From IMG/VR virus record IMGVR_UViG_3300040801_001224, positions 248,001 to 312,000 of that record: a DNA stretch of 64,000 nucleotides; one strand, written 5' to 3'. The DNA is from a virus. The notes below the pieces were generated by a model, which ran no database searches, was not told the origin of the DNA, and worked only from the letters and a program-made list of their open reading frames with translations. Of this stretch, positions 5,817 through 22,752 are shown piece by piece (the stretch's first letter is position 1; every line of letters begins with the position of its first letter). Both the position numbers and the translations under genes were made by a program.

Positions 5817-7694
5817 ATGATTAAAACAGACATAAATGAGGCAGTTAACCTGCACTGTTTATTGAGTGTTACAGATGAGAATGGCATTATTATTGACGCC
5901 AATCGGAAGTTCTGCGAAACCACAGGTTACTCTCTCGAAGAAATCAAAGGCCAGAAGCATTCGATGTTTAAATCGAACCAGCATCCCAAAGCGTTTTACG
6001 AGGATTTATGGAAAACAATATCCACCGGCAACATATGGCAATCTGAGATATGTGACCTAAATAAAGCTGGTGAAGAATGGTGGGCTGAGACTACAATCCT
6101 CCCTCAAATGGATGAGCATGGCAAAATATATCAATATGTGTCAGTTAAAACTCATATAAGAAAACCAACCGCAGAATCTCCTCATCTGCCCAGAAATATC
6201 ATTCGTGATGTTTCAAATGAAATAGTATTATTCAATGAAGATACACTTAGAATCGTTGACGTTAATGCTAAGGTTTGCTGTAACACTGGTTACGTTGAAG
6301 ATGGTGAATTTGAAAAGTTAACACTCCTGGATATCCTTAGCGAGTATGACAACGATGGCATACAAGAAATAGTTTCAAAAGCAAAGTATAGAAATGAAAC
6401 AGTGGAATTTGAGACTGTCGTAGAAAGGAAAGACGGTACATATTATGATGCTCTTGTGAGAGTTCAAAACTACCAAAAAGAAGATAACAATACGTTTGTC
6501 GCTTCTATTAAAGACCTAACACAACAAAAAAAGCATGAAATGGAAATAAGCCAAGCTAAGAAGATGGAAGTACTCAGTGAGGTAACAAGCAACATTGCTC
6601 ATGACTTCAACAATCTTCTTGCCACTATACTTGGTTTTAATAAGCTAATTGAGATGCAGAGTATCAGTGGTGAGTTTGACCGCAATAAAATATTAAATTA
6701 TTCAAAGAATATTGTTGACGCAGGAAATAAATCAAAAGAACTAGTTGCTAGTATGGTTGAGTTCTCTAAGAAAGCTGACAGAGACATGACCAAATACAAA
6801 CTATACGAACTGTCTGGACTAGTTGAAGAATCACTTGATCTGTTGAGTGCTGTACTGCCTAGCGATATCACGCTATCAAAGAAACTTGATTCTAACTTAC
6901 ACGTAAAAACCAATAACATCAAATTACACCAGATTATCATGAATCTATGCTTGAACGCCAAAGACGCTATTGATCAAACTGATGGCACAATTGAAGTTGG
7001 CGTTAGAATATATACTGATGAAATAGACAAATGTACCTCATGTAGAGAAAACTTACAGGGATCTTACATTGAGTTATATGTCAAAGACAACGGCAAGGGG
7101 ATAAGTCAAGAAAAACTAAAAGATATATTCAAGCCATATTATACAACAAAGTCTGATTTGAATGGTACTGGGACAGGCCTTTCTACTGTACATAAAATTA
7201 TGCACGAACATGAAGGACACATAGTAGTTAAGTCTATTCCTCAGGTAGGAAGTGTGTTCAGCATGTTATTCCCGTTTGTCGAACAGCCAGCACATGAAAA
7301 TGATGAAGAGACTGAATATAAACCAATGCCAGGCGGTGGTCGACAACTTCTCATTGTTGATGATCAACCAGCATTAGGACTATTCCTGCAAGATCTCACA
7401 AAGGAACATGGTTATGAGCCAATATATTTTCAGGACGGCAACCAAGCCTATGATTACTATGTTGGCCACCATAACGAAATTTCAGCAGTTATTACTGACA
7501 TGGGTATGCCAGGTATGAATGGCGTCGAGCTCGTAAAGAAAATATTTGAAATTACATCAGACCCGAAGGTTATTGTATGTTCAGGCAATGTTGCTCAGAT
7601 TGACTTCAATGAATTGCCTAAAACCTGTGCTGTGCTACCAAAGCCCATTAACATCAGTGACTTCTTCCAGGAACTTGACAGTTTAATCTATTGA
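5817..7694 (+). CDS. PAS-PAS hybrid sensor histidine kinase with receiver domain
   Basis: A complete 625-aa hybrid sensor kinase. Two PAS domains come first (about 10-120 and 130-235; the first has ITDANRKFCETTGYSLEEI-type residues), with no membrane segment, so it should be cytoplasmic. The phospho-acceptor His262 is in the IAHDFNNLL box. The ATPase domain has the N box (MNLCLNAKDAID), G1 (VKDNGKGI) and G2 (GTGTGLSTV). The C-terminal receiver has LLIVDDQP, acceptor Asp561 (ITDMGMPGMNG) and the conserved CSG and KP residues. All catalytic residues look intact. Such kinases are rare in phages; partner output proteins are not evident, although CheW- and SpoIIAA-like genes lie downstream. Confidence 0.93.
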   Translation: MIKTDINEAVNLHCLLSVTDENGIIIDANRKFCETTGYSLEEIKGQKHSMFKSNQHPKAFYEDLWKTISTGNIWQSEICDLNKAGEEWWAETTILPQMDEHGKIYQYVSVKTHIRKPTAESPHLPRNIIRDVSNEIVLFNEDTLRIVDVNAKVCCNTGYVEDGEFEKLTLLDILSEYDNDGIQEIVSKAKYRNETVEFETVVERKDGTYYDALVRVQNYQKEDNNTFVASIKDLTQQKKHEMEISQAKKMEVLSEVTSNIAHDFNNLLATILGFNKLIEMQSISGEFDRNKILNYSKNIVDAGNKSKELVASMVEFSKKADRDMTKYKLYELSGLVEESLDLLSAVLPSDITLSKKLDSNLHVKTNNIKLHQIIMNLCLNAKDAIDQTDGTIEVGVRIYTDEIDKCTSCRENLQGSYIELYVKDNGKGISQEKLKDIFKPYYTTKSDLNGTGTGLSTVHKIMHEHEGHIVVKSIPQVGSVFSMLFPFVEQPAHENDEETEYKPMPGGGRQLLIVDDQPALGLFLQDLTKEHGYEPIYFQDGNQAYDYYVGHHNEISAVITDMGMPGMNGVELVKKIFEITSDPKVIVCSGNVAQIDFNELPKTCAVLPKPINISDFFQELDSLIY

Positions 7695-8300: not shown

Positions 8301-8759
8301 CTATTGCTTGATAATAGTCTTTACCACGCCTTGGTTAATCTCTGTATTACCTTTGGACTGTACGAAATGTTGCGCTCTAACACGATAGAACTCGCAGTTT
8401 AAAACACCAGCACTAAAACCTTCAATGCTACGTGGACACTGGGTTGCCGGAGAAGTTATTGTAATGTCTATATCAACTGACTCAGCACCATCACGCAATG
8501 ATGCCAATGGATTGGGTTCATCGTCAGGTAATAGATCAAAAGGTTCAGCAACATTCTTTCCGGTGAACGCTTCGTCAATAGTTAGTACTGCGGCCACACC
8601 AGCTTCGGCAGAGTTAAAGCTGATAAAATCATCCTGCATATTACCCGCCATCTTTAATTCTAATGTCGCATTAGTTGCCGCAAATACGCTAATGATTGTT
8701 AAAATAAGTAAGAATAATAGAGCAACTACTAGAGTCGCCCCTTGTTGATTTTGTTTCAT
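8301..8759 (-). CDS. pilX: PilX-like type IV minor pilin
   Basis: Minor pilins of the PilX type sit at the type IV pilus tip with PilY1. The 152-aa product has a class-III signal: short basic leader (MKQNQQG), cleavage before the hydrophobic helix ATLVVALLFLLILTIISVFA, then ATLELKMAGN-x-x-D and the FNSAEAG motif typical of PilX N-termini. Two cysteines in the C-terminal half (TQCPRS and LNCEFY) could form the usual disulfide. The Met start is chosen because GATAAATA lies exactly five bases upstream on this strand; a longer GTG frame would include the promoter. No other pilus machinery is present, so it would need the host pilus system. A PilY1-like gene lies 22 kb away. Confidence 0.87.
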   Translation of the reverse strand: MKQNQQGATLVVALLFLLILTIISVFAATNATLELKMAGNMQDDFISFNSAEAGVAAVLTIDEAFTGKNVAEPFDLLPDDEPNPLASLRDGAESVDIDITITSPATQCPRSIEGFSAGVLNCEFYRVRAQHFVQSKGNTEINQGVVKTIIKQ

Positions 8760-8764
8760 AGTAG

Positions 8765-8772
8765 TATTTATC
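8765..8772 (-). promoter_or_regulatory. Late promoter motif GATAAATA for pilX (leaderless type)
   Basis: On the minus strand; five bases separate it from the pilX ATG. It is divergent from, and 9 bp from, the early promoter at 8781. Confidence 0.75.
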
Positions 8773-8780
8773 ACGCATAC

Positions 8781-13340: not shown

Positions 13341-13539
13341 AAGAGTTTATTTAAATATACTAAGTAGCAAACATCGTTTATATTAAAACCTTGGGTAAGA
13401 TGTTGGACATTAGTTTAATTGGCAGAACGCTTGCTGGCTGGATAAGACCTTAGGAGTCATGACCTATCGTTGCTCCGATAGCTGGCTTGAAGTGGGGTTC
13501 GAGTCCCCGTGCCCACTTAGTATATTTAAATAAACTTTT
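13341..13539 (+). ncRNA. Structured RNA element closed by a 24-bp stem, containing a tRNA-like core
   Basis: Positions 13341-13364 and 13516-13539 form a 24-bp inverted repeat with a single G-U pair. Inside are AACATC/GATGTT and CTATCG/CGATAG hairpins and an expanded tRNA-like core (about 13404-13515): acceptor-like TGGACAT/GTGCCCA with one mismatch, a D-arm-like GTTTAATTGGCAGAAC, and a perfect T-arm (GGGG-TTCGAGT-CCCC). No standard anticodon arm can be placed. It may be a decayed or specialised tRNA processed from a long hairpin. Confidence 0.5.
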
Positions 13540-13542: not shown

Positions 13543-13621
13543 GGCGGCTATAGCTTAACAGGTTTAAAGCCCCTCTCTGTGAAAGAGGAAGATGTCGGGT
13601 CGGATCCGACTAGTCGCCCCA
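13543..13621 (+). tRNA. tRNA-His (GTG)
   Basis: Acceptor GGCGGCT/AGTCGCC, anticodon stem CCTCT/AGAGG with loop CTGTGAA (anticodon GTG), T-arm GTCGG-GTCGGAT-CCGAC, discriminator C. T-loop lacks the usual TTC. Confidence 0.85.
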
Positions 13622-13627
13622 AACAAC

Positions 13628-13703
13628 GGTAATGTAGCTCAGTGGTAGTAGCACATGATTCATACTCATGCGGTCGTTGGTTCAAATCCAACCATTACCA
13701 CCA
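13628..13703 (+). tRNA. tRNA-Met (CAT)
   Basis: Acceptor GGTAATG/CATTACC with encoded ACCA; anticodon stem CATGA/TCATG, loop TTCATAC. The CAT tRNA with a normal Watson-Crick first pair, so likely elongator Met. Confidence 0.9.
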
Positions 13704-13710
13704 AATTTAT

Positions 13711-13785
13711 ACTCTGTTGGAGAAACCGGTTATCTCGTCAGACTTTCAATCTGGAATTACGGGTTCGAGCCCCGTACAGAGTGCA
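13711..13785 (+). tRNA. tRNA-Glu (TTC)
   Basis: Acceptor ACTCTGT/ACAGAGT, anticodon loop CTTTCAA (TTC), T-arm ACGGG-TTCGAGC-CCCGT. Confidence 0.87.
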
Positions 13786-13794
13786 AACTATTAC

Positions 13795-13823
13795 TTGACA
13801 TTACCACTTTTTAATAGTATAAT
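13795..13823 (+). promoter_or_regulatory. Sigma70-like phage promoter for ncRNA/tRNA cluster
   Basis: TTGACA-17-TATAAT with TTACCACTTTTT; the expected start is about 13 nt before the first stem of the next RNA. No protein gene follows for 1.7 kb. Confidence 0.9.
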
Positions 13824-13842
13824 GTCAATATTAAGAAGTAAG

Positions 13843-14003
13843 TGTGTTTACAGGGTGTGAAGGCATGGGAAACGACATGCCGACAAATTCTCGAATGTCA
13901 GAGATAGGCACTGGTGTTTGAGAATGGATAAAGCCTCACCGCCTAAGAGCCATGAGCTCTATTGAGGTTGCTGGTTAGATTCCAGCCGCACCCTGTAAAC
14001 ACA
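13843..14003 (+). ncRNA. Promoter-driven multi-helix RNA with tRNA-like 3' end
   Basis: Closed by a 17-bp stem (13843-13859 with 13987-14003, one G-U pair). Inside, in order: GGCATG/CATGCC hairpin, a 9-bp stem ATTCTCGAA/TTTGAGAAT, a CCTCA/TGAGG stem capped by AGAGC/GCTCT, and a T-arm-like GCTGG-TTAGATT-CCAGC directly before the closing strand. The inner acceptor-like GGGTGTG/CGCACCC makes it look like a five-arm tRNA mimic. No known family recognised. Confidence 0.6.
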
Positions 14004-14210
14004 TTAAGATAATGGTCTAAGCTGACCGTCGCGACAACCGATATGCTAAGTAACTGATTTAGCGGTTAGTGAAACACATAGAGGACAATGCTTCAAGGAG
14101 GATTTCCACTGCCTTGTAAAACAAAACGGTGGAGCCAAATTCAATGGGACCTCCCTGGTGATATATTACGCAAACGTCATAGTTTGTTAGCGCAACCATA
14201 GGCCCGCCAA
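14004..14210 (+). ncRNA. Structured spacer RNA ending in CCA
   Basis: Between the previous RNA and tRNA-Asp. Contains GGTC/GACC and AACC-x5-GCTAA/TTAGC-GGTT helices, CAAGG/CCTTG, a hairpin around CGCAAAC/GTTTG, and a terminal pairing GGG(A)CCT/AGGCCC followed by GCCA and AAATTT, the same 3' context as the real tRNAs. A tRNA-like or processed spacer RNA is inferred. Confidence 0.4.
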
Positions 14211-14216
14211 ATTTAA

Positions 14217-14293
14217 GGGGATGTAGCATAGTTGGTTAATGCGCCGGCCTGTCACGTCGGAGACCGCGAGTTCAAGTCTCGTCATTCCCGCCA
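14217..14293 (+). tRNA. tRNA-Asp (GTC), copy 1
   Basis: Acceptor GGGGATG/CATTCCC, GCCA end; anticodon stem CCGGC/GTCGG, loop CTGTCAC (GTC). A second Asp tRNA lies at 23496. Confidence 0.9.
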
Positions 14294-14300
14294 ATTTTAA

Positions 14301-14391
14301 GGAAGGTACCGCTAAGTGGCTGGCAACCTGGTTTGAACCCAGGGGCGTTGATTGAGAGTCGGCGGGGGTTCGATTCCTCTACCTTCCTCCA
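14301..14391 (+). tRNA. tRNA-Ser (TGA)
   Basis: Class II: acceptor GGAAGGT/ACCTTCC, anticodon stem CCTGG/CCAGG with loop TTTGAAC (TGA), long variable arm, TCCA end. Confidence 0.88.
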
Positions 14392-14552
14392 AACCGGTAA
14401 CCGTTAGTATCTAGACTATGTGAGGCACCACAGACGTGGCGAACGGTTAGCATAGTTGACCAATAGGTGGTGGAGAATGCCACTGGGACGGTTTAATGCT
14501 GTCGCAAGACCGCTATAGGGGAGCAACGATACTGAGAGTGCGAACCCCACCA
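14392..14552 (+). ncRNA. Structured spacer RNA ending in CCA
   Basis: TAACCGT/ACGGTTA closes a first domain with a CCAC/GTGG hairpin; then GTGG/CCAC, an ACGGT/GACCGC-type helix and GGGG/CCCC close to the ACCA end and ATTTT. Not a tRNA cloverleaf. The CCA-AATTTT end matches neighbouring tRNAs. Confidence 0.4.
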
Positions 14553-14559
14553 ATTTTAT

Positions 14560-14650
14560 AGTAGGTTGCCAGAGTTGGTCTATTGGCGCGGACTGCTAAT
14601 CCGTTGGGTTCTAACGAGCCACGTGGGTTCGAATCCCACACCTACTGCCA
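14560..14650 (+). tRNA. tRNA-Ser (GCT)
   Basis: Class II: acceptor AGTAGGT/ACCTACT, GCCA end; anticodon stem GCGGA/TCCGT, loop CTGCTAA (GCT), long variable arm, T-arm GTGGG-TTCGAAT-CCCAC. Confidence 0.88.
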
Positions 14651-14656
14651 AATAAT

Positions 14657-14743
14657 GTATGTGCGTCAGAGTTGGAGAGCTGAAGCGGACTGTAAACCCG
14701 TTGCCAAAGTGCTGAATAGGTTCGATTCCTATCACATACACCA
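14657..14743 (+). tRNA. tRNA-Tyr (GTA)
   Basis: Acceptor GTATGTG/CACATAC, ACCA end; loop CTGTAAA (GTA); long variable arm as in bacterial Tyr; one A-C mismatch at the base of the anticodon loop. Confidence 0.87.
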
Positions 14744-14820
14744 AATTTCGTTTACGTAGGCTTTCGATATAAGCCCGGGGGGAAGCATGAAACCCCCTCA
14801 AGAACATGCTTATCTTTAAT
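14744..14820 (+). ncRNA. Hairpin plus H-type pseudoknot in a tRNA spacer
   Basis: GGCTT/AAGCC hairpin, then GGGGG/CCCCC whose loop holds AAGCATG, which pairs with CATGCTT downstream. That is a textbook H-type pseudoknot layout. No gene follows that it could control other than tRNA-Gly. Confidence 0.5.
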
Positions 14821-14898
14821 GCGTCTATAGTGTTCAACGGCTCAGCACGTTAGGCTTCCACCCTGAAAGTTTCGGTTCGAATCCGAATAGACGCTCCA
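14821..14898 (+). tRNA. tRNA-Gly (TCC)
   Basis: Acceptor GCGTCTA/TAGACGC, TCCA end; anticodon stem TTAGG/CCTGA, loop CTTCCAC (TCC). Confidence 0.88.
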
Positions 14899-14903
14899 AT
14901 TTT

Positions 14904-14972
14904 TCTTGCCGATGTGGTGTACAACACATCATTAAATAATGCCATACACGTAAAGTCACTGTGGGGGCAAGA
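14904..14972 (+). ncRNA. Small three-helix RNA in a tRNA spacer
   Basis: CTTGCC/GGCAAG closes the element; inside are GATGTG/CACATC and CCATA/TGTGG hairpins. tRNA-sized but with no T-loop or encoded CCA. Confidence 0.4.
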
Positions 14973-14983
14973 ACATTTTATAT

Positions 14984-15058
14984 GGGTCACGGTCTGGGTA
15001 ACCGGGTTGGTCTCCAAAACCGACTGTCTGCCAATTTCGATTATTGGGTGGCCCGCCA
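14984..15058 (+). tRNA. tRNA-Trp (CCA)
   Basis: Acceptor GGGTCAC/GTGGCCC, GCCA end; anticodon stem TTGGT/ACCGA, loop CTCCAAA (CCA); T-arm CCAAT-TTCGATT-ATTGG. Confidence 0.87.
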
Positions 15059-15101
15059 ATTTTAATGAGAGGAAACAAAGGATGAAACCTGGTAAGATCT
15101 A

Positions 15102-15123
15102 GGCGGACAACATACAGTCCGCC
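15102..15123 (+). other. Perfect 7-bp hairpin between tRNAs
   Basis: GGCGGAC/GTCCGCC with an eight-base loop and no T tract; possible processing or RNA-stability element. Confidence 0.4.
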
Positions 15124-15143
15124 ATATAAATTAAATATATGAC

Positions 15144-15220
15144 GGACTCATAGCTCAATTTGGTAGAGCCCCGGTCTTTTAAATCGGTTGTTCCAGGTTC
15201 GAGGCCTGGTGGGTCCACCA
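15144..15220 (+). tRNA. tRNA-Lys (TTT)
   Basis: Acceptor GGACTCA/TGGGTCC, ACCA end; anticodon stem CCGGT/ATCGG, loop CTTTTAA (TTT). Confidence 0.9.
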
Positions 15221-15336
15221 ATTTTTATCTTCGCAGACCTGTAACCATATTCTGCCTCCGCCGTCGACGAAAACAGGATGGGCTGTCGGCGCAAGGTTTG
15301 TAGTTATCCTGACCCAAAACTACATCCATTTTCTGT
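15221..15336 (+). ncRNA. Structured spacer RNA upstream of the initiator tRNA
   Basis: CAGACC/GGTTTG encloses GCCG/CGGC with an inner CAG/CTG, followed by a GTAGTT/AACTAC hairpin. A second GCAG-AC strand here could also pair with the initiator tRNA 3' strand. No ORF. Confidence 0.4.
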
Positions 15337-15419
15337 CGCAGGCGAGTGGAACGGATATATAAACCATACCGGGCTCATAACCCGTGTGATACTGGGTTCG
15401 ACTCCCAGGTCTGCTACCA
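15337..15419 (+). tRNA. Probable initiator tRNA-fMet (CAT)
   Basis: Position 1 (C) faces T72, an unpaired first position as in bacterial initiators, while 2-7 pair (GCAGGC/GTCTGC). The anticodon stem ends in three G-C pairs (GGG-CTCATAA-CCC), the other hallmark. The D-stem has T11-A24 instead of the usual A11-U24 and the D-loop is long, so this is probable, not certain. ACCA is encoded. Confidence 0.75.
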
Positions 15420-15421
15420 AT

Positions 15422-15497
15422 GGAGAGTTAGCTTTGTAGGTCAAAGCGTCCGGTTGAAGCCCGGAAGAACCTGGTTCGAATCCTGGACTCTCCACCA
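15422..15497 (+). tRNA. tRNA-Phe (GAA)
   Basis: Acceptor GGAGAGT/ACTCTCC, ACCA end; loop TTGAAGC (GAA) on a TCCGG/CCGGA stem. Confidence 0.9.
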
Positions 15498-15503
15498 AAT
15501 TTA

Positions 15504-15511
15504 GATAAATA
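15504..15511 (+). promoter_or_regulatory. Late promoter motif GATAAATA (leaderless type)
   Basis: Five bases before the acetyltransferase ATG. Confidence 0.75.
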
Positions 15512-15516
15512 GTGTT

Positions 15517-15993
15517 ATGCGATTAGATGAGATACTAAAAGAAGAAACACAGATACAATTCGGATCAGCATTTATGAATCCAGTGACTAAAGATAAGACG
15601 AAATTATTTTTAGACAGCGAATTGTATATAGACCAGGAAGGCAAAGAATTCAAAAGTTGGTGGAGCAATCCAGAACAACATTTTAAGAATGGCGGTGTTT
15701 TTGCTGTGGCATATGCAGATGGAGAACCAGTAGGCGTTGGTGTCATAAAACTACCTGACGAAGTGCTTAGTGGTGAAGTAGATGGCAAGGAAATCGCGTA
15801 TATAGGAGTAGTCGGATTCTTAGTAAAAGAAGAATTTAGAAACTATGGGTTAGCAACACGGTTGGCTTATCTACTCGAAAACAAAATACTTAGTGTATAC
15901 AATCTTCCAGACAATACTACGCCAATTGTAGTTTGTACTGGCAAAGCCTGTGAAGTAGCACAGAATTTCAAAAGAATACAAATCGAAAAATAA
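15517..15993 (+). CDS. GNAT-family N-acetyltransferase with capsid-targeting-like N-terminus
   Basis: The acetyl-CoA-binding core is visible: beta4 IGVVGFLV followed by the R/Q-x-x-G-x-A-like FRNYGLATRL turn and helix (about residues 90-118). The substrate (protein, antibiotic, tRNA or small molecule) cannot be read from sequence. The first nine residues (MRLDEILKE) match those of other proteins here (MKVNDIIKE, MRLNDILLE) and end in an L-x-E site like that cut by the T4 prohead protease, so it may be packaged in the capsid. No ribosome binding site; late, probably leaderless. Confidence 0.75.
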   Translation: MRLDEILKEETQIQFGSAFMNPVTKDKTKLFLDSELYIDQEGKEFKSWWSNPEQHFKNGGVFAVAYADGEPVGVGVIKLPDEVLSGEVDGKEIAYIGVVGFLVKEEFRNYGLATRLAYLLENKILSVYNLPDNTTPIVVCTGKACEVAQNFKRIQIEK

Positions 15994-16000
15994 CAATATA

Positions 16001-16029
16001 TTGACAACGCCACTTACTTGTGTTATTAT
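16001..16029 (+). promoter_or_regulatory. Sigma70-like phage promoter
   Basis: TTGACA-17-TATTAT with CGCCACTTA in the spacer; followed by AAGGAGAAG and the next ATG. Confidence 0.82.
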
Positions 16030-16051
16030 AATAATATAAGGAGAAGATGTT

Positions 16052-16249
16052 ATGATATATGAAAGCTCAAAAGACTACGGTACCGGTGAAGTCACCCTAC
16101 TGTTTGATAATCGAACACCATCCTATACGGAAATATCAGAGCATGTTGAGGAGAACTATTCAATGACGTCCTTCTCATACATGATTGAGGAACCTACCGA
16201 ATATAATGGTCTGGTAAATCCTGGTATAGTGAGGGTAATTCAACAATGA
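16052..16249 (+). CDS. Hypothetical protein, 65 aa
   Basis: Strong AAGGAG site and own promoter. Small alpha/beta protein (VTLLFDNRTPSYTEISEHV...). It overlaps the next ATG by 4 nt. Unknown. Confidence 0.65.
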   Translation: MIYESSKDYGTGEVTLLFDNRTPSYTEISEHVEENYSMTSFSYMIEEPTEYNGLVNPGIVRVIQQ

Positions 16250-16428
16250 AATTCCAAGTTACTGTAATAGAAAGCGAACGTGGCTGGGGTCAAAAGATTG
16301 ACGAAGTCCGTGAGTTCAACAGTGCTGACAAAGCATGGAAATTTTACGATGAAGTAAACAGCAGAAATACAGAACGTACTGCTCCAGACATATACTGGCA
16401 AGCACAGCCGCCAGTAAGAATAGAATAA
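16246..16428 (+). CDS. Hypothetical protein, 60 aa
   Basis: Coupled to the upstream gene (ATGA overlap). Reads as beta-strand, DEVREFNSADKAWKFYDEV helix, then a short tail; similar in style to small phage modulators. Unknown. Confidence 0.6.
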   Translation: MKFQVTVIESERGWGQKIDEVREFNSADKAWKFYDEVNSRNTERTAPDIYWQAQPPVRIE

Positions 16429-16429
16429 T

Positions 16430-16505
16430 AGTCCCGTAGCTCAGTCAGGAGAGCGCAGAGCTGATAACTCTGAGGTCGCAGGAGCAAAGCCTGCCGGGAC
16501 TACCA
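16430..16505 (+). tRNA. tRNA-Ile (GAT)
   Basis: Acceptor AGTCCCG/CGGGACT, ACCA end; anticodon stem CAGAG/CTCTG, loop CTGATAA (GAT). The T-loop is AGCAAAG instead of TTC-x-A-x-x, unusual. Confidence 0.85.
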
Positions 16506-16512
16506 ATTTAAC

Positions 16513-16587
16513 GCCGAGTGGTCTGGATGTTTAGGTGCTGGTCTGCAAAACCATGTTAACAGGGTTAGATTCCCTGACTCGGCTCCA
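16513..16587 (+). tRNA. tRNA-Cys (GCA)
   Basis: Acceptor GCCGAGT/ACTCGGC, TCCA end; loop CTGCAAA (GCA) on CTGGT/ACCAT; T-arm CAGGG-TTAGATT-CCCTG. Confidence 0.87.
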
Positions 16588-16588
16588 A

Positions 16589-16665
16589 GCCCCTATAGCT
16601 TAACTGGTTAAAGCGTCGAGCTCATAACTCGGGGAGTCCTTGTTCGAATCAAGGTGGGGGCACCA
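16589..16665 (+). tRNA. tRNA with CAT anticodon (Ile2 or Met)
   Basis: Acceptor GCCCCTA/TGGGGGC, ACCA end; stem TCGAG/CTCGG, loop CTCATAA. As a third CAT tRNA next to Ile-GAT it may be the lysidine-modified Ile2 species; sequence alone does not settle it. Confidence 0.85.
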
Positions 16666-16672
16666 ATTTTTT

Positions 16673-16829
16673 TAACTTGTGCCGGAACTGGTATACGGGG
16701 GTGTGGTCTCAGTCAATATGAATAGGGTTGTGAATAAAGAATAGCAACTCTTGTACCCAGGGCGAAAACCACCAGGCGGTAAGCAGTACAACGCAAAACG
16801 CCATTGTAGGTTCAAATCCTACCAAGTTA
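16673..16829 (+). ncRNA. Expanded 157-nt tRNA-like RNA
   Basis: Perfect acceptor-like stem TAACTTG/CAAGTTA and a perfect T-arm (GTAGG-TTCAAAT-CCTAC) at the 3' end; a Leu-type D-arm (CCGGAACTGGTATACGG) at the 5' end. Between them are about 100 nt with AGGGTTG/CAACTCT and TTGTAC/GTACAA helices and no clear anticodon arm. No CCA encoded. It looks like a tRNA carrying a structured insert. Confidence 0.5.
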
Positions 16830-16895
16830 ATTATGCGCGGTCCACGTTCCTCGCTGTAACTTTTGTTACATAGGTTGTGATTATGGCGGCGCACC
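16830..16895 (+). ncRNA. Small CCA-ended spacer RNA
   Basis: GCGC/GCGC ends around a TGTAAC/GTTACA hairpin with a TTTT loop; ends ACCA then TTTT like the neighbouring tRNAs. tRNA-sized but not a cloverleaf. Confidence 0.3.
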
Positions 16896-16902
16896 ATTTT
16901 AT

Positions 16903-16976
16903 AGGGTCATAGTGTAATGGTAACACCCGAGATTTTGATTCTCGTATTCCAGATTCGAGTTCTGGTGACCCTGCCA
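16903..16976 (+). tRNA. tRNA-Gln (TTG)
   Basis: Acceptor AGGGTCA/TGACCCT, GCCA end; stem CGAGA/TCTCG, loop TTTTGAT (TTG). Confidence 0.9.
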
Positions 16977-16992
16977 ATTTTACGCAGTTCGT

Positions 16993-17000
16993 GGTAAATA
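16993..17000 (+). promoter_or_regulatory. Late promoter motif GGTAAATA (leaderless type)
   Basis: One mismatch to GATAAATA; five bases before the ATG at 17006. Confidence 0.6.
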
Positions 17001-17005
17001 CAGTT

Positions 17006-17392
17006 ATGTGTACCCTGACGAACTTTTGTGTATTAGATGACATCGACGGCATCACAATCATATGTTTAACAGACGATATGAGTCAACAAGATGCCATGCT
17101 TCTTATCGATCACTTGAGGGAACACGAACTGTACCATTATCGTCTGTTGGATTTTAATCAGTATCCATGTCAGATGTCTTCAAAAGACATTGAAGCACTT
17201 GCTGAATACGACAAGAAGTTTCCAGAAAAAAACTATGGTGCTCTGATTGCTAAAGACAACCTAACATATGGTTTAATGAGAAAATATGCGGCCCATCGTG
17301 AAATGGATGATCTAGCAACTATACGTGTATTTAGGACCATGCGTGAAGGCATAGCGTGGTTAAAAAAGAAAAGACACGATCAAGATAAATAA
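17006..17392 (+). CDS. SpoIIAA/STAS-like protein, paralogue 1
   Basis: Paralogue of the next gene: both share HYRLLDFNQ/YRYRLFDFNG, an AEYDKKFPEKNYGALIA-type segment (AD-x-D...P-E-x-x-Y-x-A-I-I-A) and a final IRVFRTMREGIAWL. That strand-helix order and the VRVF...WL ending resemble SpoIIAA-like/STAS-Sec14 proteins found with signalling systems. The start at 17006 is chosen from the promoter spacing; the GTG at 16991 would be upstream of the predicted transcript. Function is inferred only. Confidence 0.55.
   Translation: MCTLTNFCVLDDIDGITIICLTDDMSQQDAMLLIDHLREHELYHYRLLDFNQYPCQMSSKDIEALAEYDKKFPEKNYGALIAKDNLTYGLMRKYAAHREMDDLATIRVFRTMREGIAWLKKKRHDQDK
17384..17391 (+). promoter_or_regulatory. Late promoter motif GATAAATA (leaderless type)
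   Basis: Lies in the last codons of the upstream paralogue; five bases before the ATG at 17397. Confidence 0.7.
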
Positions 17393-17396
17393 TACT

Positions 17397-17780
17397 ATGC
17401 TAATACATGACTTATACGACTTTAACTATGTCGATGGTATTCTTATGACTACCCTTAAACATAGCCCGACACTTGAGACAATCAGACAATTGGTTGATTA
17501 TCAGATCAAGACAGACCGTTATCGTTATCGTTTATTTGATTTTAATGGTTTTACTCCTGCTGAAATGAGGGCAAGTGAAGTCAGAAGATTAGCAGACTAT
17601 GATCGAGCATATCCAGAAGAAAGTTACTCAGCTATCATAGCTGATGACGCACTATTGTTTGGCATTGAACGCATGTTTGAAACCTACAGAGACCGCAGTG
17701 GTTATTCTCGAGTAAGAGTATTCAACGATAAAGAAAATGGTCTAACCTGGCTTAAATTACTACAAGCCAATAATTCTTAA
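17397..17780 (+). CDS. SpoIIAA/STAS-like protein, paralogue 2
   Basis: 127 aa, aligned with paralogue 1 over its length (RYRLFDFNG, SAIIADDALLFGIERMFETY, RVRVFNDKENGLTWL). RMFE followed by VRVF and WL is the part most like SpoIIAA-like proteins. A duplicated pair, each with its own late promoter, suggests separate doses rather than an operon. Could interact with host anti-sigma or signalling proteins; not shown. Confidence 0.58.
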   Translation: MLIHDLYDFNYVDGILMTTLKHSPTLETIRQLVDYQIKTDRYRYRLFDFNGFTPAEMRASEVRRLADYDRAYPEESYSAIIADDALLFGIERMFETYRDRSGYSRVRVFNDKENGLTWLKLLQANNS

Positions 17781-17798
17781 AATCTTTTGAAAAAAAGG

Positions 17799-17827
17799 TT
17801 GACAAACCCATTATACTCTAGTATAAT
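17799..17827 (+). promoter_or_regulatory. Sigma70-like phage promoter for giant RNA
   Basis: TTGACA-17-TATAAT; no ORF of note follows for about 1.4 kb, only structured RNA and tRNAs. Confidence 0.9.
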
Positions 17828-17833
17828 ACAATT

Positions 17834-18700
17834 CAAAGTTAAGCAATGTCGCATATCGACGATAAGGCACTGAAAGGTGTCGAAGGATGGGAATCCAACA
17901 GCCCATCACCAGCAATGGTAGAGGTATGCAAGCCGAGACTCCAATAAGATATCAGTCATGCTGGTATTAGGAGACAAAGGCTCTCTTAGGGAAGTACCCC
18001 CAGGCCAACGGTGAGGGGCGAAAGTAACAGGTGAAGCTGACTACCTAGGGTTCAAAGAGCTAAGTTGACAGAGTCAAAGGGTAGTGTTACTTGTACAAGA
18101 CTTAGCGGTCGAGTGCTGTGACGCAGTCTTATAGGTAGTGTCCACAACCAGGGCATAATATCTAGAAAGACAACTGAAAAGTAACCTTAGCGGGTGAAAC
18201 AGTATTCGGTGTAGCGTATTCTGTACTCCAAAAGAGTATGGACCGTTTTAGAGGCGCACATCGAGGTTGGTTTAAGTTAGCTCAATTGGTTAGAGCAACG
18301 GCATTTTGGAGCCGTGGGTTCTTGGTTCAATTCCAAGACTTACATACAAAAACGCAAAGACGCCTCTACGTAGTAGTAACGATTAAATGACTTAATTGTC
18401 CGTACACTCCGGTGAATACGGAATAGGTTGAACTCGCAAGGTGACGCCTAGTTTGTTTGAAGTCGCACATTGGATTTAGCGATCCTTAACTGCTCGCAAG
18501 GCAGATGGAACACTGACAGCAGAAACGACTACTATAAAAGTGTAAACGCCAGCACTATAAAATGGGCAGTCATGCTTGATACCGAAAGACGAGACCACGG
18601 TCTGTCCAAGGGGAGTAGGGCTTAACTAGCAAGGTCGCACTTGTTAGGTACGAGTTCCGAATGATCAAGTGTAATACGTCCTAACTCTCAGACGTATCTA
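17834..18700 (+). ncRNA. Giant structured non-coding RNA (~870 nt) with embedded tRNA; GOLLD/ROOL-like candidate
   Basis: Promoter-driven and free of ORFs. Many strong local helices: GTCG/CGAC, GATGGG/CCCATC, CTCC-AATA/TATTAGGAG, AAGACT/AGTCTT, TACTC/GAGTA, AGAGGCG/CGCCTCT (18250-18256 with 18361-18367, enclosing a tRNA), TCCGTA-CAC/GTG-x2-TACGGA (18399-18422, UCCG loop), CTGC/GCAG, GACC/GGTC, CTAGCAAG/CTTGTTAG and TACGTC/GACGTA at the 3' end. Size, phage setting beside tRNAs and an internal tRNA match what is known of GOLLD RNAs. The 3' end is an estimate; no T-tract terminator is seen. Confidence 0.6.
18271..18345 (+). tRNA. tRNA-like domain embedded in the giant RNA (Gln TTG or Pro TGG)
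   Basis: D-arm GCTC/GAGC, T-arm CTTGG-TTCAATT-CCAAG and acceptor TTTAAGT/ACTTACA with one mismatch. The anticodon stem ACGGC/GCCGT leaves an eight-base loop (ATTTTGGA), so the anticodon register is uncertain. No CCA is encoded, unlike nearly all other tRNAs here. Confidence 0.6.
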
Positions 18701-18754
18701 ATTTATCATTTAGGCAAAAGTATTCATAAAGTTTTCAGTGTTAAATTTAAGATA

Positions 18755-18762
18755 GATAAATA
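18755..18762 (+). promoter_or_regulatory. Late promoter motif GATAAATA before tRNA-Leu
   Basis: 21 nt before the tRNA-Leu(TAG) 5' end; suggests late expression of part of the tRNA set. Confidence 0.5.
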
Positions 18763-18782
18763 ACACTGTACTTAATAAGTAA

Positions 18783-18870
18783 TGCCGAGGTGGAGGAACT
18801 GGTAGACTCGCGGTCTTTAGGTGTCCGTTCCATATTTGGAGTGTGGGTTCGACTCCCACCCTCGGCACCA
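18783..18870 (+). tRNA. tRNA-Leu (TAG)
   Basis: Class II: acceptor GCCGAGG/CCTCGGC, ACCA end; loop TTTAGGT (TAG), one T-T mismatch in the anticodon stem; long variable arm. Confidence 0.85.
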
Positions 18871-18886
18871 ATTGAAAAGTTTTAAT

Positions 18887-18962
18887 GCCACTATAGCTCA
18901 GCTGGTAGAGCGCCACACTTGTAATGTGGATGTCCCGTGTTCGATTCATGGTGGTGGCACCA
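18887..18962 (+). tRNA. tRNA-Thr (TGT)
   Basis: Acceptor GCCACTA/TGGTGGC, ACCA end; stem CCACA/TGTGG, loop CTTGTAA (TGT). Confidence 0.9.
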
Positions 18963-19090
18963 AACATAATGGTCCTGTTCCTATAATAGCAGGTATTGGT
19001 GGTAGAAATGTGTAAACGGTTTAAGGGCACCACCCTTCCTTAAACTCCGGACGATACGTAACCGGCCATAAATTTAAGGAGAATATTAAG
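18963..19090 (+). ncRNA. Structured tRNA spacer
   Basis: Perfect 8-bp GTTTAAGG/CCTTAAAC hairpin plus TCCTG/CAGGT and CCGG/CCGG pairings; ends GGCCATAAATTT, echoing the tRNA 3' context. No ORF. Confidence 0.35.
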
Positions 19091-19167
19091 GGGGCGGTAG
19101 CTCAATTTGGGAGAGCACCTGTTTTGCAGGCAGGCGGTTGCGGATTCAAGTTCCGCCCGCTCCACCA
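19091..19167 (+). tRNA. tRNA-Ala (TGC)
   Basis: Acceptor GGGGCGG/CCGCTCC, ACCA end; stem CCTGT/GCAGG, loop TTTGCAG (TGC). Confidence 0.9.
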
Positions 19168-19204
19168 GTCCGACTCAATAAAACTCCACCAAAATTCCTA
19201 TATA

Positions 19205-19212
19205 GATAAATA
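19205..19212 (+). promoter_or_regulatory. Late promoter motif GATAAATA (leaderless type)
   Basis: Five bases before the HNH endonuclease ATG. Confidence 0.7.
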
Positions 19213-19217
19213 CTAAT

Positions 19218-20048
19218 ATGATAGGAAAATGCTCATGTGTTATATGTAAAAAACAGTACTCTGGAAAGGGGATACACACCCATGCCGACAGAACTCATGG
19301 TGACGAAGAGACAAAAGCCAAATATAGTTCAGGATATAATGGCAGATACAATGATCCAGAACATATGAAAAACTTAAAAAAGTCATTAAAAAAGTTTTAC
19401 GACAAAGAGTTAGGCCCTAAAAAAACATATAATGTTTCTTGCCATAAGTGTGGTAAAGATTTCGATGTAACCGAAAGAGAAAATCAATTTCCGTCTAAAG
19501 AAAAATATTTCTGTTCTGCAACTTGTAGAAATACTAGGTCGCATACAGAAGCCACAAAACAGAAAATAAAAAAATCACTCAGAAAATATAATGGGCCTGA
19601 AAAAATATATGAAAAGACATGCCCTTGGTGTAGTAAAATTCACACTACTAAGGAAAAAAATAAAAAATTCTGCTCGCGAGATTGTGCCACAAAACATAAA
19701 TCGGCAGAAGCCAGGAAACATCGTTCGGCATATAAGAACTACAGGGCAGATTGCGAATTTAGGTTTAATCTAAAAGATTATCCAGAAGAATTTAATTTCG
19801 CACTTATTGAAGAGCATGGATGGTATAGTGCGGCCAATAGAGGAAATAATCTATATGGTGTGAGCCGAGATCACATAGTAAGTGTGAAATACGGCTTTGA
19901 GAATAATATAGATCCAGCTATTATATCTCATCCAGCAAATTGCCAGTTAATGATACATTCGGACAATGTATCAAAATATACGAATAACGATTTAACAATC
20001 GACCAGCTTTTAGAGAAGATCGAAATCTGGAATAATAAATACATTTAA
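19218..20048 (+). CDS. HNH homing endonuclease with zinc-finger modules
   Basis: Three Cys-pair modules (CSCVICKKQYSGKGIHTHADRTH; CHKCGKDF...FCSATCRN; CPWCSKIH...FCSRDC) alternate with NUMOD3-like helices (HTEATKQKIKKSLRK), followed by a C-terminal HNH-type nuclease (SRDHIVSVKYGF...ISHPANCQLMIHSDN). It sits between two tRNA genes and is expressed from its own late promoter with no ribosome binding site. Confidence 0.8.
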   Translation: MIGKCSCVICKKQYSGKGIHTHADRTHGDEETKAKYSSGYNGRYNDPEHMKNLKKSLKKFYDKELGPKKTYNVSCHKCGKDFDVTERENQFPSKEKYFCSATCRNTRSHTEATKQKIKKSLRKYNGPEKIYEKTCPWCSKIHTTKEKNKKFCSRDCATKHKSAEARKHRSAYKNYRADCEFRFNLKDYPEEFNFALIEEHGWYSAANRGNNLYGVSRDHIVSVKYGFENNIDPAIISHPANCQLMIHSDNVSKYTNNDLTIDQLLEKIEIWNNKYI

Positions 20049-20163
20049 CAACACCTTCTAAGCCTCTGTTTACATGCTCACCCCGGGAGGTTACTTAAAC
20101 GGCTCTCCAAGCCGCTCACGCTGAACAATTAGAGTTCATATGTCATGCTGTGGAGAGTTATTT
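20049..20163 (+). other. Non-coding spacer before tRNA-Gly
   Basis: CGGCT/AGCCG hairpin and a GTGGAGAGTTA string like the 5' end of tRNA-Phe; no gene seen. Confidence 0.3.
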
Positions 20164-20237
20164 GCGTCCATAGTTTAGTGGTAAAACGATAGCTTGCCAT
20201 GCTGTAGTCCCGAGTTCGACTCTCGGTGGACGCTCCA
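20164..20237 (+). tRNA. tRNA-Gly (GCC)
   Basis: Acceptor GCGTCCA/TGGACGC, TCCA end; stem ATAGC/GCTGT, loop TTGCCAT (GCC). Confidence 0.9.
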
Positions 20238-20371
20238 AACACGATGGTGGTCCGGGCTGATAAACTGGACGCCACCCAGTGTATTGTGGTGGATAGGCTG
20301 GAACCCTTTTGGAGCATGGTCCCAAAACTCTGAATAGAACGATCCTCTGCTCACATCACATAGTTTATATT
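20238..20371 (+). other. Non-coding spacer with a stem-loop
   Basis: GTGGTCC pairs with GGACGCCAC (one bulge) around 20250-20277. The lipoprotein gene follows without an obvious ribosome binding site. Confidence 0.3.
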
Positions 20372-21397
20372 ATGATAAAATACATTCTATTACTCTTATT
20401 ATTGGTTGGTTGCTCAGGTGATGATAACCCTGAGCCTGTTACTGAATTCGGCTTTACTATGCTTCAGCCCAATTCATACCAATTACAGTGGCCTGAAGAT
20501 CCAGATGCCACATATTACGTCATAGAAACAAACACAACGTCCAATATACTTAACATTGACTTATCAACTGTTGAATTGACTGATAACAAATATGTGTTTG
20601 AGTGGGATGTATTATTCAACGGCTCAGTACATCATAGGATAACGGCATGTACGATGAGTGGCTGTAAGGAGCCTGGAGAATGGTTATTAATATTTGAAGT
20701 GCCCCAATTTCCGGATACGCCATATCAGATAGACGTTCTAGCTGTATATGACAATAGAGCGTTTGATATAGACAACGGTATCGCAACTAAAATAAACAGG
20801 GACTTTGCTAAAATCAACGACATACTGCTCAATAACAATTTAGAGAGCTATGTAAAGTTTAACTTGGTGACAATGCGTCTGGACAGAACGTTTGATTGGC
20901 CACGTGACAACACAAGTGCTAATGAAGCGTTAATAAACGATCCTGAAATACAGGCATTGCGTGATGATGCTGGTGCAGATATAGTTATAGGTATAAACAC
21001 TGATCCGGGTTTCCCTGGTGGTGGTACCGGCAAAATGTATATGGATTCGGATAGAAAACAATTCTTCACGTTTTACACATACACCGAAATAGAACAACAG
21101 GCATACGCCACAGTAGCACAATATACGTTAGGTTCGGAAGATCACGTACTCTTACATGAGATGCTACACACATTTGGGTTACAGCATGACCTACAGACAG
21201 CGTTCATAGACTTCAATGTCAGTGCTGAATATTCTTATGCTCATGGTTTGCAGAGTGAACGGGAATGTACTATTATGGCAAGGGCGTGTCCACGTAATCT
21301 AATACTAGCAGATGAACCCACTAATACCGGTGGTTTTTCATCAAGTAACAAATTGCGTTTTATGGAAACAATTCCTGTTATAGCAGATTTTAGATAA
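20372..21397 (+). CDS. Lipoprotein metalloprotease, metzincin-like (HExxHxxGxxH)
   Basis: The start at 20372 gives a clean lipoprotein signal (MIKYILLLLLLVGC, lipobox LVGC); the longer frame adds an unlikely leader. The mature 327-aa chain has a fibronectin-like beta domain first (FTMLQPNSYQLQWPEDPDATYYVIE-type spacing) and then a zinc protease domain with HEMLHTFGLQHD: His262 and Glu263 catalytic, third His at 272. A downstream Met (CTIMARACP) may be the Met-turn. Expected to be anchored in the host outer membrane or periplasm. A surface protease from a phage could cleave receptors or pilus/envelope proteins. Substrate unknown. Confidence 0.75.
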   Translation: MIKYILLLLLLVGCSGDDNPEPVTEFGFTMLQPNSYQLQWPEDPDATYYVIETNTTSNILNIDLSTVELTDNKYVFEWDVLFNGSVHHRITACTMSGCKEPGEWLLIFEVPQFPDTPYQIDVLAVYDNRAFDIDNGIATKINRDFAKINDILLNNNLESYVKFNLVTMRLDRTFDWPRDNTSANEALINDPEIQALRDDAGADIVIGINTDPGFPGGGTGKMYMDSDRKQFFTFYTYTEIEQQAYATVAQYTLGSEDHVLLHEMLHTFGLQHDLQTAFIDFNVSAEYSYAHGLQSERECTIMARACPRNLILADEPTNTGGFSSSNKLRFMETIPVIADFR

Positions 21398-21402
21398 AAC
21401 TA

Positions 21403-21431
21403 TTGACAATCCCACTATCCTGTAGTATAAT
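21403..21431 (+). promoter_or_regulatory. Sigma70-like phage promoter (leaderless type)
   Basis: TTGACA-17-TATAAT; six bases then ATG at 21438. Confidence 0.9.
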
Positions 21432-21437
21432 ACCTAT

Positions 21438-21773
21438 ATGAAAGTTACAGGAACGCAAACTAAAGAAGTTAAGATTGAAATTAGTGATTATCAGATTGAA
21501 AAGATCATTAGAAAATCCAACTTACCCATTAAAGAATACGCAAATATATTAGAATCTAAATATATTAGAGAAGTATTCAAGGAAGATGGTTACAGCGAAT
21601 CCAACTACCCAGTATATGATTATGAACGTAAAAAATGGGAAATATGGGTTGAAGCATATCATGGTAGTGATTGGACTAATCCTGTTCGTGATGCAACAGA
21701 GAATGAAATTGCTGTAATGAATGCTATTCAAGAAATTAGAAATGTGTTCCTCGCAGAAGAGTTAATTAAATAA
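21438..21773 (+). CDS. Hypothetical protein, 111 aa, predicted leaderless
   Basis: Start codon at the predicted +1 and no ribosome binding site. Soluble helical/beta protein with a WEIWVEAYHGSDW aromatic centre. First gene of a three-gene coupled run. Unknown. Confidence 0.65.
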   Translation: MKVTGTQTKEVKIEISDYQIEKIIRKSNLPIKEYANILESKYIREVFKEDGYSESNYPVYDYERKKWEIWVEAYHGSDWTNPVRDATENEIAVMNAIQEIRNVFLAEELIK

Positions 21774-21976
21774 TGGATAGAATACCAACCATAAATCATA
21801 CGGACCGTCCGGTTGGCCATGATAAATATGATGACATGCTATTCCGTACTCTAGATGAATTTATGGAAATGCATGATCAAGACTATCTCACAATATCTAG
21901 ATTTGATGGTGAGCTAGTTGCTCGTGTAGGTATTGAAGATTTATTTAAGTACATGAAAGAGTACATGGATCGGTAA
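21773..21976 (+). CDS. Hypothetical protein, 67 aa
   Basis: Overlaps the upstream stop by one base and the downstream start by one base. Acidic, helical; no motif. Confidence 0.6.
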   Translation: MDRIPTINHTDRPVGHDKYDDMLFRTLDEFMEMHDQDYLTISRFDGELVARVGIEDLFKYMKEYMDR

Positions 21977-22161
21977 TGTTCTTTTTAGAGTTACCTAGAC
22001 CATGGTACACCTATACAGTCAAAGATCTAGGAGTGGTTGAAAGTACTGTTAAAAGGAATAGAAAGATTGTTTTTACGGCCATGATGGAGAGTGATAATCC
22101 TGAATGGTTGAGAAAGTTAAAGCAACAGGAAAGGTTGCTTGAAAGATTAAAGGGTGCGTAA
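21976..22161 (+). CDS. Hypothetical protein, 61 aa, overlapping tRNA-Asn
   Basis: Coupled to the upstream gene. Basic C-terminal half rich in Lys/Arg/Leu. Its last three codons and stop lie in the acceptor and D-arm of tRNA-Asn, so tRNA processing would cut the mRNA at its very end. Confidence 0.5.
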   Translation: MFFLELPRPWYTYTVKDLGVVESTVKRNRKIVFTAMMESDNPEWLRKLKQQERLLERLKGA

Positions 22162-22226
22162 CTCAGTGGTAGAGTAGTCGGCTGTTAACCGATAGGTCGG
22201 ATGTTCGAATCATCCCGTGCCCGCCA
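22152..22226 (+). tRNA. tRNA-Asn (GTT)
   Basis: Acceptor GGGTGCG/CGTGCCC, GCCA end; stem GTCGG/CCGAT, loop CTGTTAA (GTT). Overlaps the 3' end of a small ORF. Confidence 0.88.
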
Positions 22227-22230
22227 AATT

Positions 22231-22309: not shown

Positions 22310-22328
22310 TTTTATATTAAGGTAGAAC

Positions 22329-22751: not shown

Positions 22752-22752
22752 T

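What the first reader, a model, noticed from the sequence alone, without database searches (positions are those of the whole stretch)
13795..14003. Promoter-driven five-helix RNA ending in a T-arm
A 17-bp closing stem starts about 13 nt after the predicted transcription start. Four internal helices precede a T-arm-like hairpin. It is a good candidate for an undescribed phage small RNA with tRNA mimicry.
Basis: seen in the sequence. Interest (0 to 1): 0.6.

Follow-up and report, generated by a model that had tools for sequence, protein, structure and literature searches.

The report
Over-built tRNA-like RNA in jumbo phage
A giant phage's tRNA gene cluster contains a strongly promoted, non-coding RNA that folds in the order of a tRNA's arms but with every arm except one lengthened and no working tRNA ends, and similarly clamped tRNAs or tRNA-like RNAs turn up in the tRNA clusters of several other large phages, so it is probably a real RNA whose job has not been shown.

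Summary
A consensus sigma-70 promoter (13795-13823) is followed about 13 nt after its expected start by a 161-nt RNA (13843-14003). It is closed by a 17-bp helix that ends on a canonical-size T-arm (fold z = -7.7; every closing pair has probability 0.96 or more). Of 75 perfect promoters on the phage's + strand, this one has the most structured downstream sequence and no ORF of at least 40 aa within 200 nt. The helix order is acceptor, D, anticodon, variable, T, but all arms except T are enlarged. There is no 7-nt anticodon loop and no CCA, and neither ARAGORN nor Rfam recognises it. A survey of other large-phage tRNA clusters found several more T-arms on acceptor helices of 17 bp or more, and none in reversed controls. 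Two of them (a 364-kb phage and Agrobacterium phage Atu_ph07) also follow a promoter-like sequence and have remodelled anticodon loops. Best reading: a non-decoding tRNA-derived RNA heading a tRNA operon, probably processed and stabilised in cis through its ~22-bp coaxial clamp. Function is inferred, not shown.

The parts
13795..13823 (+). sigma-70-type promoter TTGACA-17-TATAAT (12/12); expected transcription start ~13830
   Evidence: one of 75 perfect promoters on the + strand of the genome
13843..14003 (+). tRNA-like structured RNA (whole)
   Evidence: MFE z = -7.7; helices listed; no ORF of 40 aa or more starts in it on +
13843..13859 (+). 5' strand of the 17-bp acceptor-like closing helix
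   Evidence: pairs with 13987-14003, probabilities 0.96-1.0
13862..13881 (+). D-arm-like hairpin, 6 bp, 8-nt loop GGAAACGA; 2 nt from the acceptor helix as in tRNA positions 8-9
   Evidence: MFE
13887..13925 (+). anticodon-arm-like hairpin, 15 bp, 9-nt loop AGATAGGCA (no anticodon-loop signature)
   Evidence: MFE
13932..13969 (+). variable-arm-like hairpin, 7 bp + 5 bp
13970..13986 (+). T-arm, 5 bp, loop TTAGATT (U54-A58 and G53-C61 kept, C56 is A, as in this phage's own tRNA-Cys at 16513)
   Evidence: sequence
13987..14003 (+). 3' strand of the closing helix, directly abutting the T-arm; no CCA
14004..14216 (+). further structured spacer, with GGCCCGCCA near its 3' end, between the RNA and tRNA-Asp; identity unresolved
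   Evidence: fold; no Rfam match
14217..15497 (+). run of tRNAs (Asp, Ser, Ser, Tyr, Gly, Trp, Lys, Phe and others) probably read from the 13795 promoter
   Evidence: no strong + terminator between; co-transcription inferred
13341..13539 (+). second tRNA-like element of the same cluster: 25-bp outer stem (13341-13365/13515-13539) around a T-arm and tRNA-like core
   Evidence: MFE
17799..18700 (+). GOLLD RNA with its own perfect promoter and an embedded tRNA without CCA at 18270-18347 (comparison element; RNA ends approximate)
   Evidence: RF02032 81.8 bits, E 1.3e-20, below gathering score 150

Best explanation
It is a non-decoding RNA derived from a class II tRNA, made as the first product of an internal tRNA operon in a jumbo phage. 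Transcription starts at a strong sigma-70 promoter; the nascent RNA folds at once into a closed cloverleaf whose acceptor helix (17 bp) stacks on the T-stem (5 bp) to give about 22 bp of continuous duplex. I think this clamp works mainly in cis: it gives a double-strand-specific host RNase (RNase III type) a place to cut the head off the tRNA precursor, and leaves a compact, exonuclease-resistant RNA while the downstream tRNAs are matured in the usual way. Shown: promoter match, predicted fold beyond chance, T-arm, lack of ORF, anticodon loop and CCA, position at the head of a tRNA run, recurrence of clamped tRNAs or tRNA-like RNAs in other large phages. Inferred: descent from a tRNA, transcription, coaxial stacking, RNase III cleavage, stability, and any role in trans.
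For: Fold far beyond chance and unique among the phage's promoters. tRNA helix order with a 2-nt acceptor-D gap and a T-arm abutting the acceptor helix. Scan for a T-arm on a long acceptor helix: besides the window's, seven convincing and one doubtful example with 17 bp or more in tRNA clusters of large phages, 0 in reversed controls of 654 kb, 390 kb and 1.76 Mb (weaker forward hits of score 26-31 occur outside tRNA genes). In a separate test on 495 predicted phage tRNAs, five have strong leader-trailer pairing (scores 22-36; next best 6) against 0.07 expected at 18 or above when leaders are swapped. In nearly all of these T-stem plus acceptor makes about 22 bp or more. Two others with remodelled anticodon loops (364-kb phage L206 8330-8186; Atu_ph07 L218 2535-2394) also sit directly after a promoter-like sequence. 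In the 364-kb phage the clamp is preceded by a copy of a bacterial rRNA-operon leader: 31 nt, 90% identical to a site found a median of 7 times per E. coli genome, upstream of 16S rRNA in the one inspected; that region of rRNA transcripts carries boxA and the RNase III processing stalk (general knowledge).
Against: No homologue of this particular RNA was found, so no covariation supports its fold. No expression data. The other clamped elements share architecture, not sequence, and may be unrelated in origin; five of them are otherwise ordinary tRNAs in mid-cluster. Association of the clamp with loss of CCA is not significant (3 of 5 against 110 of 490, p = 0.08). RNase III cleavage is inferred from helix length alone; an acceptor-T helix in a folded tRNA may not be a good substrate.
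Confidence: 0.4

Rival explanations
1. It acts in trans as a stable tRNA-shaped decoy: its T-arm and long acceptor helix engage a host tRNA-binding factor or a tRNA-attacking defence nuclease and spare the phage's working tRNAs.
For: Canonical-size T-arm is the only arm kept at normal dimensions; no CCA and no anticodon, so not for translation; own promoter. Phage tRNAs that counter tRNA-cutting defences are documented (PMC10264068, PMC11555353, titles and abstracts).
Against: Those systems mostly recognise anticodon or variable loops, which are not tRNA-like here; position at the head of the operon suits a cis role equally well; no target identified.
Confidence: 0.22
2. It is a decayed tRNA gene whose flanks and arms carry chance or duplicated inverted repeats; the fold has no function.
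For: Phage tRNA clusters carry many odd tRNAs with large inserts (window 15228-15419, 16672-16830). No homologue shows conservation.
Against: 50-plus pairs with almost no mismatch, z = -7.7, a private consensus promoter placed 13 nt upstream, and recurrence of the clamp in other phages are not what decay leaves.
Confidence: 0.15
3. It is a structural or scaffolding RNA of the GOLLD/ROOL type that happens to contain a T-arm.
For: The same cluster has a GOLLD RNA with its own consensus promoter and an embedded tRNA without CCA.
Against: Far shorter (161 nt against 800 or so), no Rfam match to GOLLD, ROOL or any family at E <= 10 at this locus.
Confidence: 0.1
4. It is a working tRNA with long introns or with ends removed by unusual processing.
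For: Atu_ph07 and Mimasvirus-type phages have tRNAs with inserts in the anticodon arm; helix order is that of a tRNA.
Against: I could find no single insert whose removal gives a standard D-arm and 7-nt anticodon loop; ARAGORN and the Rfam tRNA model do not score it.
Confidence: 0.05
5. It is a phage Y RNA (YrlA-like), whose long end stem binds a Ro60 protein and whose other half imitates a tRNA.
For: Long terminal stem plus T-arm; jumbo phages with TROVE proteins are noted, with a tRNA-like partner known in cellular organisms (PMC7824862).
Against: No TROVE domain in the genome although a control genome rings (the record may be incomplete); no YrlA match at this locus at E <= 10; in Y RNAs the T-arm lies away from the end stem (general knowledge), here it abuts it.
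Confidence: 0.03

Closest known systems
Class II tRNA (Leu/Ser/Tyr type)
   Same: Five arms in the same order; 2-nt gap after the acceptor; 5-bp/7-nt T-arm abutting the acceptor helix
   Different: Acceptor 17 bp not 7, D 6 bp, anticodon arm 15 bp with a 9-nt loop, no CCA, not recognised by tRNA finders
Leader-trailer clamped phage tRNAs found here (tRNA-His of the 364-kb phage G002, tRNA-Pro of G037, two tRNA-Asn and one tRNA-Thr of Sinorhizobium phage Phosso)
   Same: T-arm on an acceptor helix of about 17-25 bp; some without CCA
   Different: Their cores are normal tRNAs with anticodons; no sequence similarity
Promoter-proximal tRNA-like RNAs of G002 (L206 8330-8186) and Agrobacterium phage Atu_ph07 (L218 2535-2394)
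   Same: Follow a promoter-like sequence, long acceptor helix without CCA, anticodon loop replaced or expanded, tRNA cluster
   Different: Both keep a tRNA-like D-arm; the Atu_ph07 one still scores as a tRNA (57 bits); no variable arm like the one here
GOLLD RNA (RF02032)
   Same: Non-coding RNA with own promoter in phage tRNA islands; may contain a tRNA without CCA
   Different: Several times larger, different structure, forms a multimeric cage (PMC12286853)
YrlA / bacterial Y RNA (RF02553)
   Same: Terminal stem plus tRNA-like features
   Different: No Ro60 gene here; different placement of the T-arm; no model match
tmRNA
   Same: T-arm next to an acceptor helix in an RNA longer than a tRNA
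   Different: No CCA, 17-bp acceptor; ARAGORN and Rfam tmRNA searches negative

Membership tests
tRNA | 7-bp acceptor stem with 3' CCA | tested here: not met
   17-bp helix, followed by TTAAG, no CCA
tRNA | 5-bp T-stem with 7-nt T-loop directly 5' of the 3' acceptor strand | tested here: met
   13970-13986, loop TTAGATT, abuts 13987
tRNA | 5-bp anticodon stem with 7-nt loop | tested here: not met
   15-bp stem, 9-nt loop
tRNA | recognised by tRNA gene finders | tested here: not met
   ARAGORN and Rfam RF00005 silent at this locus while finding 25-26 tRNAs in the window
Y RNA / YrlA | Ro60 (TROVE) partner gene in the genome | tested here: not met
   PF05731 absent in the 328-kb record; control positive; record possibly incomplete
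Y RNA / YrlA | match to RF02553 | tested here: not met
   no match at this locus at E <= 10
tmRNA | match to a tmRNA model | tested here: not met
   ARAGORN reports no tmRNA; no Rfam tmRNA match
GOLLD / ROOL | match to the family covariance model | tested here: not met
   GOLLD matches 18206-18694 instead; nothing at 13842-14003
Clamped phage tRNA-like RNA (proposed here) | T-arm abutting an acceptor helix of 17 bp or more | tested here: met
   score 44, 19 bp counted, 0 mismatches
Clamped phage tRNA-like RNA (proposed here) | conserved helices with compensatory changes among relatives | tested here: inconclusive
   no homologue of this RNA found; two Phosso tRNA-Asn copies keep the clamp with one restored, one wobble and one lost pair
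T4-type stable RNAs of the phage tRNA cluster (species 1 and 2) | sequence or structural relation | not tested
   literature search returned nothing; no sequence compared

The most novel reading that the evidence does not exclude
Large phages carry a recurrent, unrecognised kind of RNA: tRNA-derived cloverleaves clamped by a 10-18-bp extension of the acceptor helix, some placed at the head of tRNA operons with the anticodon arm rebuilt, that work as processing or stability modules or as tRNA-shaped effectors rather than in decoding. The window's RNA is the most elaborated example.
Probability: 0.35. Interest if true: 0.72.

Novelty: new variant of a known kind. Interest (0 to 1): 0.52.

Why it matters
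Phage tRNA clusters are usually read as lists of tRNAs for translation or for resisting tRNA-cutting defences. A promoter-driven tRNA-shaped RNA that cannot decode, together with clamped tRNAs in several other large phages, suggests that some of these loci make tRNA-like RNAs for another purpose. It also gives simple sequence-level markers (T-arm on a long acceptor helix, promoter directly upstream, rRNA-type boxA leader) that make the idea testable in phages that have been isolated, such as Atu_ph07, Phosso and Vibrio phages pv27 and Va1.

Tried and rejected
blastn of the RNA against 50,697 phage records, distant mode up to E = 10: no plausible homologue. Exact T-arm 17-mer in IMG/VR: three hits, about what chance would give (own estimate); two lie inside ordinary tRNA-Cys and tRNA-Arg, the third (L007) has no ARAGORN tRNA. 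Single-sequence covariance model R1 on about 98 other viral records: only the clamped tRNA-Asn of Phosso clearly above noise. Protein-anchored IMG/VR scans for a close relative with an intact cluster: closest TerL 80% but on a 63-kb fragment with one tRNA; cluster gene 17397 and the QueC-like gene gave nothing useful. Y RNA idea: no TROVE gene. Link between clamp and loss of CCA: suggestive, not significant. pv27/Va1 comparison: five differences and different inner folds, so no covariation test possible.

Full report
Setting. The window is bases 248001-312000 of a 328,096-base IMG/VR virus record. MoxR and TerL place it nearest the PA5oct-like Pseudomonas jumbo phages (MoxR 55%, TerL 62.5% identity) and Sinorhizobium phage Phosso. 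ARAGORN finds 26 tRNAs in the window, from 13544 to 28235 plus one at 42839; further odd tRNAs (Tyr at 14657, Trp-like at 14983) appear only with the Rfam models.

The observation. The promoter at 13795-13823 is TTGACA-17-TATAAT, 12 of 12. The RNA folds with MFE z = -7.7 over the stated interval. The closing helix is 17 bp (13843-13859 with 13987-14003), with pair probabilities of 0.96-1.0 even when folded with all sequence down to tRNA-Asp. Inside are a 6-bp hairpin 2 nt from the closing helix, a 15-bp hairpin with a 9-nt loop, a two-part hairpin of 7 + 5 bp, and a 5-bp/7-nt T-arm that abuts the closing helix with no spacer.

More than chance, and not a gene for a protein. I listed all perfect TTGACA-(16-18)-TATAAT sites in the genome: 75 on the + strand, two on the - strand. 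Seventy of the 75 have an ORF of at least 40 aa starting within 200 nt. The five that do not are this site, the site before the GOLLD RNA (17799), the site before tRNA-Leu (42785), and two sites outside the window (G000 4740 and 118690). The 200 nt after 13795 are the most structured of all 75 (z -7.7; next -3.8).

What it looks like. The order acceptor, D, anticodon, variable, T, the 2-nt gap after the acceptor and the T-arm abutting the acceptor strand are those of a class II tRNA. The T-loop UUAGAUU keeps U54, A58 and the G53-C61 pair; C56 is A, but the phage's own tRNA-Cys at 16513 has the same loop. All other arms are enlarged, the anticodon loop is gone, and the 3' strand continues into the extended helix instead of ending in CCA. 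ARAGORN and the Rfam tRNA model do not see it, and no Rfam family reaches E <= 10 there. It therefore resembles a tRNA in layout but fails tRNA membership.

Search for homologues. blastn against the phage collection gave nothing. A covariance model from the single sequence was run on whole records of about 98 other viruses including PA5oct, Phosso, Atu_ph07, Vibrio 2.275.O and six further jumbo phages; the only match clearly above noise was a stretch of Phosso (32.7 bits) that proved to be a tRNA-Asn with an extended acceptor helix. Covariation for the window's RNA therefore could not be tested. The large records were scored with stricter filters, so weak homologues may have been missed.

Survey of the architecture. 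I scanned for a T-arm abutting a long acceptor helix. In tRNA clusters of large phages this gave the window's RNA and: G002 (364-kb record) tRNA-His with 21 bp, and a tRNA-like RNA with 24 bp; G037 tRNA-Pro with 18 bp; Phosso tRNA-Asn with 18 bp and tRNA-Thr with 25 bp; Atu_ph07 with 18 bp; Vibrio phage pv27 with 21 bp, 97% identical in phage Va1. One more hit in L206 (+ strand, 6329-6503) has an A+T-rich T-arm on the strand opposite the tRNAs and is doubtful. Reversed sequence gave none. In an independent test on 495 ARAGORN tRNAs, leader-trailer pairing is sharply split: five tRNAs score 22-36, the next 6; 0.07 are expected at 18 or above when leaders are swapped. The fifth is a second Phosso tRNA-Asn that shares the clamp sequence but has a different acceptor stem; between the two copies one clamp pair is restored, one becomes G-U and one is lost.

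Operon heads. Three of these elements directly follow a promoter-like sequence: the window's, the G002 tRNA-like RNA (TTGACA-17-TACAAT) and the Atu_ph07 one (TTGACG-17-TATATT, after a terminator-like hairpin). The same three have rebuilt anticodon arms. In Atu_ph07 the anticodon loop holds a small acceptor-plus-T-arm helix, and a second Atu_ph07 tRNA at 68159-68280 has a similar insert. The G002 element is preceded by a leader that matches E. coli rRNA leaders: 31 nt at 90%, a median of 7 places per genome, 117 nt before 16S rRNA in the example inspected.

Mechanism. With the T-stem stacked on it, the closing helix gives about 22 bp of continuous duplex, and nearly all other examples reach that length or more. 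That, the head-of-operon position and the rRNA-like leader of the G002 example make processing of the precursor by a double-strand-specific RNase and protection of the product the explanation I favour, at 0.4. The alternative that the product works in trans as a tRNA-shaped decoy stands at 0.22. Neither transcription nor processing was observed. A decayed tRNA is possible (0.15) but sits badly with 50-odd nearly perfect pairs behind a private promoter.

Literature. Searches of the held papers for tRNA-like RNAs in jumbo phages, extended acceptor stems in phage tRNAs, and T4-type stable RNAs returned nothing that describes this kind of element; the library is partial, so this is weak evidence of novelty.

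Verdict. A strongly supported RNA fold behind a consensus promoter, tRNA-like and non-decoding, that does not belong to a known family and may be part of a recurrent kind of clamped tRNA-like RNA in large phages. The class rests on architecture only, and the function is open.

Noticed in passing
window 17799-18700: GOLLD RNA (Rfam 81.8 bits, below the gathering score) with its own perfect promoter and an embedded tRNA without CCA, given a four-base anticodon call (tttg) by ARAGORN. The G002 phage GOLLD also holds a CCA-less tRNA (tttc).
   Followed up: partly
window 8301-8774 (-) and 30621-34013 (+): The phage encodes proteins matching PilX_N (E 1.3e-12) and the PilY1 beta-propeller (E 1e-7), that is, type IV pilus minor-pilin and tip-adhesin homologues.
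   Followed up: partly
L101 4740-5180 (G000:4740-5180): A promoter without ORF drives a stretch with a short hairpin plus T-run and then about five repeats of a TCAAGGRYTTAGGNTC motif roughly 38 nt apart; possible non-coding repeat RNA.
   Followed up: no
window 15228-15419, 16672-16830, 13341-13539: tRNA-like genes with large inserts or an outer stem: a Met-type tRNA with a ~110-nt insert near the D-arm, a T-arm/acceptor pair enclosing 143 nt, and a 25-bp outer stem around a tRNA-like core.
   Followed up: partly
L225 (Atu_ph07 68159-68280), L218 (Atu_ph07 323894-324035): tRNAs whose anticodon loop contains an insert that itself folds as a small acceptor helix with a T-arm-like hairpin, followed by the shared tail AANAGTAANCAG.
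   Followed up: partly
L245, L248, L236, L233 (phages CBB, GAP32, SNUABM_12, Kaldavass): 117-123-nt tRNAs sharing an insert in the anticodon arm with a GATTC...GAATC hairpin and the motif ACAGCAA; looks like a conserved non-canonical tRNA of these jumbo phages.
   Followed up: no
L206 minus strand around 8344 and again just downstream of 8186: rRNA-operon-type leader (boxA-like TGTTCTTTAACA with an upstream hairpin) in a phage tRNA cluster, suggesting that the phage borrows rRNA antitermination.
   Followed up: partly
window 42930-43230: Long non-coding structured stretch after tRNA-Leu (42839), same transcription unit as the promoter at 42785; no Rfam match at gathering thresholds.
   Followed up: no
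G000 whole record: 75 perfect sigma-70 promoters on the + strand against 2 on the -, many sharing CCACTT after the -35 hexamer.
   Followed up: partly
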